Of a stretch of 64,000 nt of DNA, positions 36,066 through 44,239 are shown one piece after another. The notes beneath the pieces are model-generated. The model worked only from the letters and a program-made list of their open reading frames with translations. It had not been told where the DNA came from and did no database searches. The stretch lies in the NCBI GenBank assembly GCA_017640725.1, contig JAEPQB010000001.1, positions 1,488,001 to 1,552,000 on the forward strand, given 5' to 3'. A program made the translations under genes and the position numbers. The DNA comes from Kordiimonadaceae bacterium. Its GTDB lineage: Bacteria; Pseudomonadota; Alphaproteobacteria; Sphingomonadales; Kordiimonadaceae. How positions within the stretch are numbered: position 1 is the stretch's first letter; every line of letters starts with the position of its first letter.

Positions 36066-37007
36066 ATGGCACATGGAACGCACGATTATGCAGCCGACGA
36101 GCGAAACGCCAATGTGCTTATCAATATTAACGGCGACCTGGTGCCAAGGGCTGAAGCCACGGTTTCCGTATTTGATAGCGGTTTTGTGCTAGGGGACGGT
36201 GTTTGGGAAGGTCTGCGGGTGCATGGCGGTGTTATCGTGTTCCTGGGCCGCCACTTAAAGCGCCTGTATGAAGGTGCCAAGGCATTGGACATCGACATGG
36301 TGTTGTCGCCAGAGCAGCTTGCCAGCCGTCTGTATGCAACCATTGACGCCAACAATATGGAAGAGGGCGGACATATTCGCCTGATGGTCACGCGCGGCGT
36401 TAAAGCAACGCCCTATCAGGACCCACGCGTGACGATTAGCGAACCCACGATCGTCATCATTCCGGAGTTTAAGTCGCCACTAAAGGAAACTTTGGATGAG
36501 GGCATCAAGCTGTTCACCGTCCATGTGCGCCGAGGTTACCCGGACGTGCAGGATCAGAAGTTGAACTCGCATTCAAAACTCAATTGTATATTGGCTTGTA
36601 TTCAGGCGACCAAAGCTGGCGCCGATGAAGCCCTGATGCTTGACCCGCACGGTTTTGTGGCAACCTGCAACTCCACGCATTTTTTCATTGTTAAAGACGG
36701 AGAGGTTTGGACCTCCACAGGCCAGTTTTGCCTGGGCGGTGTTACCCGGCGGTTGGTTCTTGAAAGCTGCCACGACAATGGCATTCCTGCGTTTGAGAAA
36801 AACTTCAGCCTGACCGATGTGTATAGCGCGGATGAAGCCTTTGTCACCGGCACCTATGCCGGCTTGGTTCCAGTGCACACGATTGATGGGCGAACAATCG
36901 GTGCGAGTGGAAGCCAGTCCAGTTTACCGGGGCCTATGGTTGCCCGGCTGCGCGACGCCTATGCGCAGAAAATCGGCCAAGCAGTGGATGCGGGCCGGGT
37001 CCCGTGA
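36066..37007 (+). CDS. Class IV aminotransferase (BCAT/D-amino-acid-like)
   Basis: A 313-residue PLP enzyme of fold type IV. The N-terminal phrases SVFDSGFVLGDGVWEGLRV and the PLP lysine, probably Lys171 in LNSHSKLNCILACIQA, place it there. The C-terminal family phrase is FCLGGVTRRLVLE. The family's usual glutamate near the pyridine nitrogen, in the phrase G.V.E, appears as Thr200 (GFVATCNSTHFF), which is odd. The ATG at 36066 has GGGGAGA upstream. It overlaps the next gene by 4 bases (GTGA), so the two are translated together. The substrate is unknown. Confidence 0.85.
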   Translation: MAHGTHDYAADERNANVLININGDLVPRAEATVSVFDSGFVLGDGVWEGLRVHGGVIVFLGRHLKRLYEGAKALDIDMVLSPEQLASRLYATIDANNMEEGGHIRLMVTRGVKATPYQDPRVTISEPTIVIIPEFKSPLKETLDEGIKLFTVHVRRGYPDVQDQKLNSHSKLNCILACIQATKAGADEALMLDPHGFVATCNSTHFFIVKDGEVWTSTGQFCLGGVTRRLVLESCHDNGIPAFEKNFSLTDVYSADEAFVTGTYAGLVPVHTIDGRTIGASGSQSSLPGPMVARLRDAYAQKIGQAVDAGRVP

Positions 37008-37744
37008 CTGTGGCGCCGATCAAGCGGCTTGCCATGTGGTCGGGCCCCCGGAACATTTCAACGGCCCTGATGCGGTCCTTTGAAAACCGGCCAGATTGCA
37101 GCGTCGTGGATGAACCGTTTTACGCCTGCTATTTGCACAAAACCGGCCTTGATCACCCGGGTCGTGAAGACGTGTTAGCCAGTCAATCCATTGATGCCGT
37201 GTCGGTCATTCGATCCCTGAACCAGCCACTAGCGCCCGGTATTTCCCTGCAGTATGAAAAGCATATGGCGCACCATTTCCTGCCGGGAATGCCATCTGAT
37301 TGGTTTCAAAGCAGGCATCATTGCATCTTACTGCGTGACCCAGAGGCGGTGATTGCGAGCTACATCAAAACGCGGCCAACGGTTACGCTCGAAGATATCG
37401 GCATATTACAGCTCCAGGGCTTGTTCAAAAAAATAACGAATGAGCGGGGAGAGGCCCCGCTGGTTGTTGATAGTGACGATTTGTTGCAAAACCCTGCTGG
37501 CATGCTTCAGGCGATTTGCAACCATATTGGCATTGAGTTTTTGCCCGCCATGCTGTCCTGGCCTTCGGGGAAACGGGATAGTGACGGTGTTTGGGCACCC
37601 TGGTGGTATGAGCGGGTGGAGGCCTCAACTGGTTTTGAAGTGAGGCCGCCTTTCGACGGCGAATTGGATGCCAAATGGCAGAACATTGCCGAACAGGCCG
37701 CTGATATTCACCAGCAGTTGGCACGCCATAGAATCCGGATTTGA
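37004..37744 (+). CDS. Sulfotransferase-like P-loop protein
   Basis: A 246-residue protein that begins MTVAPIKRLAMWSGPRNIST. The segment WSGPRNISTALMRSFENRPDC (residues about 12-32) is the sulfotransferase-type PAPS 5'-phosphate loop, followed by VVDEPFYACYLH. Further on is HHCILLRDPEAVIASYIKT, which fits the 3'-phosphate site (RDP...S). Its true acceptor is unknown, and the loop may bind another nucleotide. It overlaps the aminotransferase gene by 4 bases, so it probably acts on the same metabolite. See the finding on plant fusion proteins. Confidence 0.75.
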   Translation: MTVAPIKRLAMWSGPRNISTALMRSFENRPDCSVVDEPFYACYLHKTGLDHPGREDVLASQSIDAVSVIRSLNQPLAPGISLQYEKHMAHHFLPGMPSDWFQSRHHCILLRDPEAVIASYIKTRPTVTLEDIGILQLQGLFKKITNERGEAPLVVDSDDLLQNPAGMLQAICNHIGIEFLPAMLSWPSGKRDSDGVWAPWWYERVEASTGFEVRPPFDGELDAKWQNIAEQAADIHQQLARHRIRI

Positions 37745-39753: not shown

Positions 39754-40896
39754 CTACTCAGTGCCCTCGCCAATATAGCGGCTGATCCTGTCGAACAGGT
39801 CTTTCATCGCGGCACCGGTTTCCGGCAGGTCTTCGCGCGGTAGGTCCAGGTGGTTGATCGGGATTTCCTGGTAGTATTGTTCAAAAACCGGCTTCACAAT
39901 TTCATAGGCGAAATTGGGGATTTTGCGGCCTTTGCGAAATTCTGCGATGGGGATTTCCGCTTCAATAATACCGTCTTTGTCCTTGGTGGGTTCCTTCGCC
40001 AGAATTTTCCCCTTGTTATCAACGATGATCGACTCGCCCGCGGAATAGTTGGGATTAAGCGGCAGGGCAAAATTCGACATGGCCGAATAATAATTGTTGG
40101 TGAACGCCGTATAGGTCACGTCAGCTTCATCAAACAAGGTCGCTGTCCGCAGCATAATTTCAGTGCCCCGCATGGCAAATGCCGCGAAGATGAACGGATC
40201 AAATTGCACGGTGCTCACGGCGATGTTGCCAAACTCGGTTTGTAGAACAGGAAACTCTTCTTCCATGCCATACATGGCGCGGTATTTGTCGCGCACCGCC
40301 TCAATGGTTGTTGTGGTGATTTCCCGGTCAGCATACAGGCGTTTGATATTGCGTGATTTCCAGAATTTTTTAACAATTTCGCCCTCGCGGTTAATGACCG
40401 TATTGATGCTGAGGATGTGGCCGGGCCAATCCGGGTCCACCGCATAACTGCCAAAAATCAGGTAGGTGTCGCAGGCTTTGGCCACTTTGCCCAGCCGGTC
40501 TGTTTCCGGGCCCGGAATTTGCACGGTATAGGGCAGCTTTTCCGTGCGCGAGCCAGAGGAATAGCCGGTCAGCGGGAACTCATGATACAAAAGAATGTCG
40601 GGCTTTTTACCTCTGGTGCAGGCGTCGTTCGCCATCTTTTCCATATGGGCCAGATTAAAATCCAGGCCTTCCTCGATGGAAGGAAACGATTTCAGGGAAT
40701 TCACCCCTGTTTGAATGACCTTCAGGACAACAACATCCTTTTCAAGGGGCACAGTAGGGTAGGAACCATCCGGCTGCACCAGCACCGGTTCCGCTGATGT
40801 ATTCTGCGCTGTACTTTCACCGCCTGCCATCGATAACCCCAGCAGGAATGCAGCCCCCGCAGCAAGGCCGATTGTCGCCATCATTGTTGTTTTCAT
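39754..40896 (-). CDS. Exported nitrilase-fold protein lacking the catalytic cysteine
   Basis: A 380-residue exported protein. Residues 1-31 form a signal peptide with a hydrophobic core (ATIGLAAGAAFLLGLSMAGG). The body resembles the carbon-nitrogen hydrolase family: Glu106 in LLYHEFPLTGY and Lys180 (or 177) in VKKFWKSRN are the Glu and Lys of the triad. The nucleophile region, normally GV..C.D, reads FGNIAVSTVQFD (222-233), with Val230 or Gln231 where Cys should be, and no cysteine nearby. It is probably not an ordinary nitrilase. GGAGG precedes the ATG. It is divergent to the autotransporter gene. Confidence 0.78.
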   Translation of the reverse strand: MKTTMMATIGLAAGAAFLLGLSMAGGESTAQNTSAEPVLVQPDGSYPTVPLEKDVVVLKVIQTGVNSLKSFPSIEEGLDFNLAHMEKMANDACTRGKKPDILLYHEFPLTGYSSGSRTEKLPYTVQIPGPETDRLGKVAKACDTYLIFGSYAVDPDWPGHILSINTVINREGEIVKKFWKSRNIKRLYADREITTTTIEAVRDKYRAMYGMEEEFPVLQTEFGNIAVSTVQFDPFIFAAFAMRGTEIMLRTATLFDEADVTYTAFTNNYYSAMSNFALPLNPNYSAGESIIVDNKGKILAKEPTKDKDGIIEAEIPIAEFRKGRKIPNFAYEIVKPVFEQYYQEIPINHLDLPREDLPETGAAMKDLFDRISRYIGEGTE

Positions 40897-41047
40897 GAGC
40901 CATCCTCCCTCTGTTCAGAATGCATTATTGGTCAGTGGGCGGTTGCGCTTCATTGACGTACATCAGCAACGTTGTTTGATCTTTGCCGCACCCCTGCCAC
41001 ATTTTGTTCAAAAAACTAGTTGCAAAGACGGAGGACGGCTGATTTCA

Positions 41048-44000
41048 ATGCGTACCAGATCAGTCGACAGCAAAATGGATCCAGATTGTATGTTTACCCC
41101 ATCAAACACCGTCGGGCGGGCACGCCGACCGGTTGTTGCATGTCTATTGGCGGGTGCCGCCGCAATTGCTCTGGCGCAAGGCGCGAACGCGCAAGACGCA
41201 GAAATTGACCAGGACAGAGAAACCGCCGCGACCACCTCTGAATTTTTGGGGGTTGACCCTGGTGTATTGGCGCTGTTGGACGGTGTGACCCTGAGCGCGC
41301 CAACCGGCCCTGTTCTTACTGTTGATGGACCGCACTCTCTAACGCTCTCTGGCACCATTCAGGGACTGGATGCCACGTCGAGCATTGGTGTGCTTGTCGA
41401 TACAGATCTTGCAGGCCCATCGGGCATTACCCTGGATGGGTCCATTATCCTCAATGGACCAGACGGGTTTGAGCTCGATTTGGGCCTTGAAGGCACCAAC
41501 ACAGGCATATTGATTGAAGGGGACGCCGCGTTTGTTGGTGACCTGACCCTGGGCGACACCGCCAGCATTAATATTTTTGGGGCAGGCAGCACCGGTATCC
41601 TGATCAACAGCCCGTTCGAAGGTGACATCGCCATCGACGGCGACATTACAATGTTCGGCAATCGGGCATCGGCGTTTACGCTCAATGGCCCTTTGACAGG
41701 TGATTTGTCTATCCTTGGTTCGCTGACTTCGACAAACCCTGACGGCGCAGGGGCTCTCATCAATGGCCCGATTTCTGGTGCTTTTGTGTTTGAGGGTGTC
41801 ATCCAGGCGGGTGAAACCATTACCTTTGACGACGATGGCAACACTATTGATGCCGTCCCGGGCATTGCAGCTATCCAGGTGACTGAGTCTATTGGCGCTG
41901 GTGTGCTGTTGCAGGGTGTGGGTGTTGAATTCACCGAAGATGGTGATGGTGACGACTCGACCACGCTGAGGGATTCTGTCATTTCCACCAACGGCGGCAC
42001 AACCGCCGTCAGCATCGTTAACCAGTCGGAAGGCAGCGACCTCACAATCGGCTTGGTCGATGGCCTTGATTATGGGTTTGTGCATCGCGGCAACATTGAT
42101 ATTGATAGCGACTCTGCTGGCCTGTCGTCAGTCGGGGTCGACGTCAGCGGTTTTTCCGCAACGGCGCGAACCATCCTTGAAGGTGGTATCCATTTCGACA
42201 CCGGCATTCTGGCCGTCAATGTGGTTGACGCAGACGCGACCGGTGTCCGGGTTGGCAATTTTGCAAGCGTGCCTGAACTGTTGAACCGAGGCACAATTTT
42301 GGCCGAAGTCGGCGTGTCCACAACCACAGACGACGATGGCAACACGGTCTTTGGTCCCGGTGGCGATGCAATTGCAGTGCTTGTTGACGAAAATGGCTCG
42401 CTAACCTCTATTGTGAATACAAATGCGATTTTGGCCGGTGCTGGTAACGCAAACACTGACGCCATCGGCATTCTTGACCGGTCTGGTACCCTCAATAGCA
42501 TTCGCAACGAAGGCACCATTCTGGTTGACCGATCGAACCCCGATGACCTTGATGTAACAGGCTTGACCGCCGCAATTGACGTGAGCGCAAACACCAGCGG
42601 CGTAACACTCTTTAACAGTGGTACAATCGCCGGCGACATTTTGCTGGGCTCGGGTGACGACACTGTCACCTTTGAAGACGGCATCCTGGCTGGCAACATT
42701 GACTTCGGCCTCGGCGCAAACAGCTTTAACCTGAACGGTGCGTCAGAATTCACAGGCTCAATCAGTCATGGTGGCACCCTTGATCTGTTCGTTTCTGGCG
42801 CAGACCTGGAACTGGGCTTGGATCAAGACTTGAATGTGACCAGCGCCCGCTTTGAAAACGGCTCCACCATCAGCATTTTTGTGGACCCTCAAAATGCGGT
42901 TCAAGGTCAGTTTATCGCGTCGGATACAGTGTTCATCGCGGGTGATACTCAAATCGATCCGGACGTGACCTCGTTCGTGTTTGAGGAGACCACATACGAA
43001 TTCCTGACATCAGGCGGCCTGACCGTTGATACTGTTGATTTGGATTCGCTGCTTACCGAGGCACCCTTCATTTATCAGACCCAGCTGGGTTACTCAGGTG
43101 ATGCCTCCAACAACCTGGCCCTGACCATCCGGCCGAAAACGGCAGACGAACTGGCGCTCGACCCGAACGCTACCATCCTCTACGAGCATTTTCTGGACAC
43201 GGCGCTTGACCCAAATGACCAGATCGAAAACGCTTTAACAGGCCTCACAACCAGAGACGCCACAAATGACGCCTTCACCAGCCTTGTGGGCGATGCGTCC
43301 TCGGCGTCAATGGATTTGGCGGCCATCATCAGTGATGTGCAACAATCCCGTTTGCGAGACAATCTGGCTGGCTTTATTCGCCGTTCGGGCCGGGATCAGG
43401 CTTTCTGGGCGCAGCAGGTGGCAACGTATGCGAATGCAAATTCTTCAAGCGAAGACGAATGGAATGCAAGCTACCTAAGTGTTGGTGTTGCTGTTGGTGC
43501 AGACCTGTTCGCTGACGAGAATTTCGCCTGGGGTGTTCAAGGGGGATTCTTGCTCTCTGGCGTCAACCGGGACCGCGGCTTTGGTGACGAACTATCGGTC
43601 TTTTCACCGTTTGTTGGTGCCTACGCAATGCTGAACAATGGCGGCCTGTATGGCGGCATCAATGCGACAGCAACCTATCACAACCTCGACCGTGAGCGCG
43701 TGGTGGCGGTTGGAGCAACCGCGCTCGAAGCGGTCAGTGACACGACCGCCTGGCAGTTTGAAGGAACAGTGACAGCCGGTTATCAATTAACCGCGGGCAA
43801 ATTTACTCTGCGCCCAGAAGTTGGGGTCTCAGGCACCAGCTACAGCGAAGGGGGCTACGAGGAAGACGGCGCCGTTTCTGCAAACCTGCGCGTTGGTTCG
43901 CGCAGCATGTCTCGCGTGGACGGGTTCGCCAGCATCACAGCCGGTTATGACTTCACATGGAGCGAAGGCGAGGTGCCCACCATCCTGCGCCCAGAACTGT

Positions 44001-44239
44001 TTGCGCAGTATCAAACTTTGCTTATTGGCGGTGACCCCGGCACGGTGCAGCTTGGTTTTCTCGCGACAGACACAACCACCACTTTCGCCATTGATGAAAT
44101 TGGTGACAGCGTAAAAGCTGCGGGCGTTGCCTTCCATCTGTTTGGCCAAGGCACTGCAGCTGCCATGCGCTATACCTACCGCGAGCGAGACTTTTTCAAC
44201 TCCCACGAAGCGTCACTGAATTTCAGGCTGAGTTTCTGA
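41048..44239 (+). CDS. Autotransporter outer membrane protein
   Basis: A type V secretion protein of about 1063 residues. A signal peptide with an extended N-region is followed by a passenger of about 700 residues full of repeating glycine/asparagine-rich beta-helix phrases (GILIEGDAAFVGDLTLG, GTNTGILI, GSGDDTVTFEDG). The last 280 or so residues form the autotransporter barrel (FWAQQVATYANANSS ... AGYDFTWSEGE) ending in a terminal phenylalanine (SLNFRLSF), as barrel proteins require. The passenger's ligand is unknown. The start at 41048 has only a distant GGAGGA (about 41028), so ATGs at 41075 and 41090 remain possible. Confidence 0.92.
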   Translation: MRTRSVDSKMDPDCMFTPSNTVGRARRPVVACLLAGAAAIALAQGANAQDAEIDQDRETAATTSEFLGVDPGVLALLDGVTLSAPTGPVLTVDGPHSLTLSGTIQGLDATSSIGVLVDTDLAGPSGITLDGSIILNGPDGFELDLGLEGTNTGILIEGDAAFVGDLTLGDTASINIFGAGSTGILINSPFEGDIAIDGDITMFGNRASAFTLNGPLTGDLSILGSLTSTNPDGAGALINGPISGAFVFEGVIQAGETITFDDDGNTIDAVPGIAAIQVTESIGAGVLLQGVGVEFTEDGDGDDSTTLRDSVISTNGGTTAVSIVNQSEGSDLTIGLVDGLDYGFVHRGNIDIDSDSAGLSSVGVDVSGFSATARTILEGGIHFDTGILAVNVVDADATGVRVGNFASVPELLNRGTILAEVGVSTTTDDDGNTVFGPGGDAIAVLVDENGSLTSIVNTNAILAGAGNANTDAIGILDRSGTLNSIRNEGTILVDRSNPDDLDVTGLTAAIDVSANTSGVTLFNSGTIAGDILLGSGDDTVTFEDGILAGNIDFGLGANSFNLNGASEFTGSISHGGTLDLFVSGADLELGLDQDLNVTSARFENGSTISIFVDPQNAVQGQFIASDTVFIAGDTQIDPDVTSFVFEETTYEFLTSGGLTVDTVDLDSLLTEAPFIYQTQLGYSGDASNNLALTIRPKTADELALDPNATILYEHFLDTALDPNDQIENALTGLTTRDATNDAFTSLVGDASSASMDLAAIISDVQQSRLRDNLAGFIRRSGRDQAFWAQQVATYANANSSSEDEWNASYLSVGVAVGADLFADENFAWGVQGGFLLSGVNRDRGFGDELSVFSPFVGAYAMLNNGGLYGGINATATYHNLDRERVVAVGATALEAVSDTTAWQFEGTVTAGYQLTAGKFTLRPEVGVSGTSYSEGGYEEDGAVSANLRVGSRSMSRVDGFASITAGYDFTWSEGEVPTILRPELFAQYQTLLIGGDPGTVQLGFLATDTTTTFAIDEIGDSVKAAGVAFHLFGQGTAAAMRYTYRERDFFNSHEASLNFRLSF

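What the first reader, a model, noticed from the sequence alone, without database searches (positions are those of the whole stretch)
36066..37744. Class IV aminotransferase coupled to a sulfotransferase-like P-loop protein: the split form of a plant fusion?
Two genes overlap by 4 bases (GTGA): a BCAT/D-amino-acid-type aminotransferase and a protein with a sulfotransferase-type loop (WSGPRNISTALMRSF) and an RDP...S site. I recall that plants have 'branched-chain-amino-acid aminotransferase-like' proteins in which these two kinds of domain are fused in one chain. If so, the bacterial pair is a gene-level version of that fusion, and both would act on one unknown metabolite. The recollection of the plant proteins is from memory and needs a check.
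Basis: partly seen in the sequence, partly recalled or inferred. Interest (0 to 1): 0.7.

Follow-up and report, generated by a model that had tools for sequence, protein, structure and literature searches.

The report
Lysine-less aminotransferase paired with a sulfotransferase
A probable sulfate-transferring enzyme of bacteria is nearly always accompanied by a protein built like an aminotransferase but lacking the amino acid that such enzymes need to work, which points to an undescribed small-molecule pathway with unusual chemistry.

Summary
In detail: an aminotransferase-class-IV gene (36066-37007 +) overlaps a Sulfotransfer_5 (PF19798) gene (37004-37744 +) by GTGA. The "aminotransferase" has Asn167 at the site of the cofactor-binding Lys, Thr200 at the site of a conserved Glu, and Lys171 four residues after the lost Lys. 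In 104 of 104 distinct Asn-type relatives these changes occur together (171 Lys/Arg, 200 Thr/Ser), with the phosphate cup intact. Seven relatives have His and keep the Glu. Of 103 distinct close relatives of the sulfotransferase, 89 have such a Lys-less gene within 400 bases; in 12 of the other 14 genomes one lies elsewhere. No Lys-type neighbour was detected. Gene order varies. The reverse is weaker: 10 of 36 class genomes with the Lys-less protein lack the sulfotransferase. The sulfotransferase keeps its PAPS motifs and fold. A Lys-less relative (Variovorax, PDB 7z79; mutant N174K, 9j32) has a structure, but ten paper searches found nothing on it or on the pair. The plant fusion could not be tested: no plant sequence was available. 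Best reading: a two-protein unit for sulfotransfer on one amino-acid-derived metabolite, with the aminotransferase fold repurposed. Substrate unknown.

The parts
36066..37007 (+). Lys-less class IV aminotransferase-like gene (313 aa)
   Evidence: PF01063 7.9e-42; best PDB match 7z79 1.4e-91
37004..37744 (+). Sulfotransfer_5 gene (246 aa)
   Evidence: PF19798 1.1e-61; model matches PAPS sulfotransferases
37004..37007 (+). GTGA overlap of stop and start
   Evidence: sequence
36564..36566 (+). Asn167 codon, at the site of the PLP Schiff-base Lys
   Evidence: stretch aligned without gaps to 5cm0, 5e25, 5mqz and to 7z79 / 9j32; 9j32 is titled mutant N174K
36576..36578 (+). Lys171 codon; Lys or Arg in 104 of 104 Asn-type proteins, Tyr in 5cm0/5e25/5mqz
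36663..36665 (+). Thr200 codon, at the site of the conserved Glu of Lys-type enzymes
36261..36263 (+). Arg66 codon, phosphate-cup Arg kept in 118 of 118
   Evidence: role recalled
37037..37066 (+). ST 5'-phosphosulfate loop W12-A21 (WSGPRNISTA)
   Evidence: of 83 strong members: W12 82; S13, G14, P15, R16 83; N17 82; S19, T20 83; A21 80
37112..37114 (+). ST Glu37, candidate catalytic base
   Evidence: 83 of 83 strong and 17 of 17 weak relatives; role by inference
37334..37360 (+). ST 3'-phosphate motif R111-S119
   Evidence: R111, P113, S119 in 83 of 83 strong and 17 of 17 weak

Best explanation
The two genes encode one functional unit. Shown: the association, the intact PAPS motifs and sulfotransferase fold, and the altered cofactor site. 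Inferred: (1) the sulfotransferase moves a sulfuryl group from PAPS to a small metabolite; (2) the aminotransferase-like protein keeps its phosphate cup and still holds a phosphorylated ligand, most likely PLP/PMP or its adduct with an amino or keto acid, but without the internal Schiff base; (3) it makes, or holds and presents, the amino-acid-derived acceptor that the sulfotransferase modifies. It therefore does not perform ordinary transamination. Step 3 and the identity of the metabolite are not shown.
For: 89 of 103 strong STs adjacent and 12 of the remaining 14 genomes carry the AT elsewhere, so ST presence nearly implies the AT. Both gene orders and an opposed arrangement occur (76 / 12 / 2; tree), so linkage is not one frozen event. 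The triple Asn / Lys-Arg / Thr-Ser is invariant in 104 of 104, with Arg66, Gly225 and Thr227 in 104 of 104: a selected site, not decay. ST motifs invariant; the ST model (pLDDT 85.6) has TPST, OLS and CurM sulfotransferases as its best matches. APS kinase in the same genome; an APS kinase is the second gene after the pair in L268. Some AT-only relatives sit in amino-acid ABC-transporter operons, with ProC or ornithine cyclodeaminase nearby in some, which points to an amino-acid-like ligand.
Against: No conserved third gene names the pathway. The AT occurs without ST in 10 of 36 class genomes and on 20 plasmid records of which none matched the ST, so the AT has some ST-independent role. Two genomes with a strong ST (G053, 87% complete, and G916) have no AT at 1e-40. 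The unit is patchy: of 7 genomes of the window's genus, 4 have the ST. Cofactor binding in the window protein was not testable. Physical contact of the two proteins was not tested.
Confidence: 0.5

Rival explanations
1. The aminotransferase-like protein is a dead enzyme that serves as a regulatory or substrate-binding subunit of the sulfotransferase, for instance sensing PLP or an amino acid.
For: Loss of both the Lys and the conserved Glu; the ST rarely occurs without it.
Against: The AT also occurs without any Sulfotransfer_5 gene found, some in transporter operons, where it cannot be a subunit of this ST; the replaced residues are themselves invariant, which suggests chemistry.
Confidence: 0.25
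2. Lysine-free PLP/PMP catalysis: the Asn/His-type proteins run an elimination-like or dehydration-like reaction on a noncovalent PLP or PMP adduct, with Lys171/Arg or the His as base, and sulfation either activates the leaving group or caps the product. This is the sharpest version of the best explanation.
For: His-type members keep the Glu and have His for Lys (7 of 7), the pattern recalled for the fold-I enzyme ColD; Thr/Ser at the ring nitrogen recalls fold-type-II elimination enzymes; the nearest solved STs by sequence profile are CurM and OLS, recalled as activating a hydroxyl for elimination.
Against: All mechanistic parallels are recalled. Lys/Arg exchange at 171 (86 / 18) speaks against a relocated Schiff-base lysine.
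Confidence: 0.2
3. An ordinary branched-chain or D-amino-acid aminotransferase next to a sulfotransferase.
For: PF01063 and fold.
Against: Catalytic Lys and Glu absent in 104 of 104 Asn-type proteins; none of the 18 NCBIfam models matched reaches its cut-off; the genome has three other class IV proteins with the Lys.
Confidence: 0.03

Closest known systems
Aminotransferase-like protein of Variovorax paradoxus (PDB 7z79; mutant N174K, 9j32)
   Same: About 50% identity, same Asn at the Lys site, Arg at +4 and Ser at the Glu site
   Different: By motif (NSHSRLN, SSCNST) it resembles the AT-only, transporter-operon type; its own gene neighbourhood was not seen here
Archaeal BCATs (Geoglobus 5cm0/5e25, Archaeoglobus 5mqz)
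   Same: Fold and phosphate cup, 36-38% identity
   Different: They have the Lys, the Tyr at +4 and the Glu
Sulfotransfer_5 family (PF19798)
   Same: Member at 208.5 bits, profile positions 3-197 of 226
   Different: A weaker subfamily (E 1e-15 to 1e-22 in Actinomycetota) has no AT neighbour; no function found in print
CurM and OLS sulfotransferase domains; TPST
   Same: PAPS-sulfotransferase fold, weak profile match to CurM and OLS
   Different: Those are modules of polyketide synthases or Golgi enzymes, not partnered with an aminotransferase fold (recalled)
[quoted passage not shown]
   Same: Recalled as carrying both kinds of domain in one chain
   Different: Not tested; no plant sequence available

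Membership tests
Class IV (fold type IV) aminotransferases as enzymes | Aminotran_4 profile and fold | tested here: met
Class IV (fold type IV) aminotransferases as enzymes | Schiff-base lysine | tested here: not met
   Asn167; PDB 9j32 is the Asn-to-Lys mutant of a homologue
Class IV (fold type IV) aminotransferases as enzymes | Glu contacting the pyridine nitrogen | tested here: not met
   Thr200; the role of the Glu is recalled
Class IV (fold type IV) aminotransferases as enzymes | Phosphate cup (Arg, Gly-x-Thr) | tested here: met
   Arg66, Gly225, Thr227 in 118 of 118; roles recalled
Class IV (fold type IV) aminotransferases as enzymes | Transaminase activity | not testable with these tools
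   -
PAPS-dependent sulfotransferases (Sulfotransfer_5) | Profile match over cut-off | tested here: met
PAPS-dependent sulfotransferases (Sulfotransfer_5) | 5'-phosphosulfate loop and 3'-phosphate Arg/Ser | tested here: met
   P15, R16, S19, T20, R111, S119 in 83 of 83
PAPS-dependent sulfotransferases (Sulfotransfer_5) | Sulfotransferase fold | tested here: met
   (best matches are sulfotransferases; TM 0.45-0.58, large rmsd)
PAPS-dependent sulfotransferases (Sulfotransfer_5) | PAPS supply in the cell | tested here: met
   APS kinase PF01583 1.6e-69 in G000
PAPS-dependent sulfotransferases (Sulfotransfer_5) | Sulfuryl transfer activity | not testable with these tools
   -
Plant BCAT-like fusion proteins | Both domains in one chain, homologous to this pair | not testable with these tools
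   no plant proteomes; paper searches silent
Bacterial fusion of the two domains | One reading frame with both domains | tested here: not met
   0 of 189 loci that hold both

The most novel reading that the evidence does not exclude
A widespread bacterial two-protein system in which a fold-type-IV PLP protein does chemistry without any Schiff-base lysine (Asn or His instead) and hands its product to a dedicated PAPS sulfotransferase, making an unknown sulfated amino-acid-derived metabolite that is retained even in MAGs of about 0.9-1.0 Mb (completeness unknown); if the recalled plant proteins are its fused form, the same pathway would be in plants.
Probability: 0.3. Interest if true: 0.88.

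Novelty: new variant of a known kind. Interest (0 to 1): 0.66.

Why it matters
Class IV proteins are often named by homology as BCAT or D-amino-acid aminotransferases. Here a whole clade carries such names (for example the plasmid records) while lacking the residues of that chemistry, and its close partnership with a sulfotransferase gives a handle on its role. If the unit makes a sulfated metabolite, it is a conserved pathway with no product that I could find in print, in bacteria of several phyla and possibly in plants. If the protein uses PLP without a lysine, it would extend lysine-free PLP chemistry (recalled from a few sugar dehydratases of fold type I) to fold type IV.

Tried and rejected
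Rejected: ordinary aminotransferase (Lys and Glu missing). Rejected: relocated catalytic lysine at 171 (Arg in 18 of 104 Asn-type proteins). Rejected: pseudogene or decay (the site is invariant and both frames are open). Rejected: chance neighbourhood.

Led nowhere: neighbour clustering around the pair found no constant third gene; one large cluster I took to be antisense frames in GC-rich DNA, by eye. NCBIfam gave no name for the ST. Both viral-contig scans found no relative. Paper searches on 7Z79/9J32, lysine-less PLP proteins, PF19798, the Arabidopsis locus codes and the fusion gave nothing on the pair. The plant sulfotransferase paper PMC12506393 (abstract, outline, sections 6, 7 and 14, passages) used PF19798 in its search but has no occurrence of 'aminotransferase' in its main text. 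PMC11625862 and PMC4783884: one passage each. All other papers: listing only. The AT model could not be used for the site: residues 157-169, Asn167 among them, have pLDDT under 50.

Full report
What is there. Two + strand genes overlap by GTGA at 37004-37007. The first is 313 aa, PF01063 (7.9e-42); the second 246 aa, PF19798 Sulfotransfer_5 (1.1e-61). Their neighbours are a SNase-like gene upstream and a CHASE4 histidine kinase downstream, both on the other strand. One Sulfotransfer_5 match was found in the genome.

The missing lysine. The nearest solved structures of the AT are 7z79 (1.4e-91) and 9j32 (9.7e-91), then archaeal BCATs. The entry title of 9j32 is 'Crystal structure of aminotransferase-like protein from Variovorax paradoxus mutant N174K'. 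Around the site the alignments have no gaps: the window has Asn167 where the BCATs have Lys; window Lys171 faces their Tyr; window Thr200 faces their Glu. That the Lys forms the Schiff base, the Glu binds the pyridine nitrogen and the Tyr lies near O3' is recalled from studies of E. coli IlvE, not from a call. The AlphaFold2 model of the AT (9 sequences, pLDDT 82.4) is not confident at residues 157-169, so the geometry of the site is not read from it.

How general it is. Over 118 distinct AT sequences: 104 have Asn, and all of these have Lys (86) or Arg (18) at 171 and Thr (87) or Ser (17) at 200; 7 have His with Leu at 171 and Glu at 200; 7 Lys-type controls all have Glu. Eight further proteins show Asn/Lys/Thr. 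The phosphate cup (Arg66, Gly225, Thr227) is kept in 118 of 118. A quick tree of 96 of these rows (SH-aLRT only, long branches among the 7 Lys-type rows) puts 6 His-type rows together (99) and the Lys-type rows apart (93). ST-linked members occur on both the His and the Asn side, so the link may be as old as the Lys-less clade; the tree cannot root this firmly. The window's genome has three other class IV proteins. They have the Lys (L079 and L080; a PabB-PabC-like frame in L082, read by eye), so ordinary class IV functions are probably covered.

How tight the link is. Of 103 distinct strong ST sequences (tblastn below 1e-38 to the window ST) 89 have the AT within 400 bases; of 23 weak ones, 1. 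Orientation of the 90: AT then ST 76, ST then AT 12, opposed 2. Of the 14 without an adjacent AT, four genomes (G041, G080, G154, G195) carry it elsewhere and eight more do too; G053 (87% complete) and G916 do not. No neighbour detected with the window AT as query was Lys-type (90 of 90 Asn or His). Loci from several searches are pooled, near relatives are present, and three of the samples below are centred on genomes already known to carry the pair, which count as one hit each. By sample: class, ST in 28 of 289 genomes (one, G261, a weak fragment), AT at 1e-60 in 36 of 289, both in 26 (Fisher); I took the two draws to be the same 289 because the handles agree. Order, ST 10 of 60, and 4 of 7 in the window's own genus. 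Phylum, 38 of 398. Phylum of a Nocardioidaceae MAG, 25 of 198, of which the 13 strong ones all have the AT adjacent (9 Asn, 4 His) and the 17 fetched weak or partial ones do not. Phylum of a Neomarinimicrobiota MAG, 22 of 120; all 20 fetched loci have the AT adjacent (19 Asn, 1 His). Phylum of a 'Deltaproteobacteria' MAG, 4 of 188, with 1 of 5 fetched loci carrying the AT. Named records that hold the pair are Kordiimonas, Wenzhouxiangellaceae, Rhodobacteraceae, Asanoa, Nocardioidaceae, Neomarinimicrobiota and Deltaproteobacteria. No fusion was seen: of 274 loci, 189 hold both, 31 of them in the same strand and frame, and none lacks a stop between.

Results against a simple reading. The AT is found without the ST in 10 of 36 class genomes, all ten of Asn type. 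Twenty plasmid records carry the AT, while the only plasmid record matching the ST is a different one. The surroundings of AT-only genes differ. Two named plasmid loci have a GntR regulator, a polar amino-acid ABC transporter, a chloride channel and pyrroline-5-carboxylate reductase; one has an FCD regulator, the transporter and a chloride channel; one has the transporter alone; others lie near ornithine cyclodeaminase, a TRAP transporter or phospholipid genes. Unnamed L208 and L210 look like the first kind (by eye; ProC-like and binding protein of L210 by Pfam). So the AT fold has a role of its own, probably on an amino-acid-like ligand, and the ST has been joined to it or lost from it.

The sulfotransferase. 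Invariant in 83 of 83 strong members: S13, G14, P15, R16, S19, T20, E37, P38, K86, R111, P113, S119, W186, W197, W201, Y202 among others; E37, R111 and S119 are also kept in 17 of 17 weak ones. The AlphaFold2 model (8 sequences, pLDDT 85.6) has TPST, olefin synthase and curacin sulfotransferases as its best matches (E about 1e-6, TM to the query 0.45-0.58, rmsd large), with adenylate kinases lower down. A profile finds CurM (9.5e-10) and OLS (3.9e-8). The genome has APS kinase. In one genome of the Neomarinimicrobiota sample (L268; 0.9 Mb MAG) the order is AT, ST, M1 peptidase, APS kinase, cytidylyltransferase-like. Two related loci (L265, L266) have an APS-kinase-like gene of the same cluster within about 3 kb of the pair (the one of L266 scores 1.9e-18), and L265 has a capsule-assembly gene. 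A weaker ST relative on a Dolichospermum plasmid lies beside cysC. These support, and do not prove, PAPS use.

Mechanism. Shown: linkage, residues, folds. Inferred: the AT protein holds a phosphorylated ligand without an internal aldimine, and the pair acts on one metabolite. Two versions remain open: a true lysine-free enzyme, or a binding or regulatory partner. ST-free relatives and the strict conservation of the new residues favour an enzyme.

The plant question. It stays open. The search for Arabidopsis locus codes returned no paper, the name returned 12 papers (listing), and one passage was read. The sharp prediction is the residue triple in the plant AT domain.

Verdict. The surprise is that the 'aminotransferase' has an altered active site. 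A structure of one such protein is public, so this is not a categorically new protein. I found no publication on the pair in the ten paper searches, which cover only the open papers held.

Noticed in passing
L224:1247-8694 and L227:2103-9500 (full set); L225:4830-9568 and L226:3832-6903 (part): ST-free Lys-less ATs on plasmids in operons with amino-acid ABC transporter genes, in the full form with GntR regulator, chloride channel and ProC; looks like a separate unknown amino-acid unit.
   Followed up: partly
L006, L009, L121, L123, L125, L129 and L253: A sister type has His in place of the Lys but keeps the Glu, in the order ST then AT or opposed to it.
   Followed up: partly
L268:6054-10541: AT, ST, M1 peptidase, APS kinase and a cytidylyltransferase-like gene in a row in a MAG of about 0.9 Mb from the Neomarinimicrobiota sample.
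   Followed up: partly
L230:4992-6920: A weaker Sulfotransfer_5 relative next to cysC on a Dolichospermum plasmid, with amidohydrolase and MATE genes; recalls a cyanotoxin cluster (not tested).
   Followed up: no
L134-L143 and L146-L150: A second Sulfotransfer_5 subfamily in Actinomycetota (loop WAVPRS in most) without an AT neighbour in the loci fetched; function unknown.
   Followed up: no
window 39757-40896 and 40895-44239: A carbon-nitrogen-hydrolase family protein (PF00795) divergent from a long ORF that by eye looks like an autotransporter; the mechanical start of the latter overlaps the former and is probably too far upstream.
   Followed up: no
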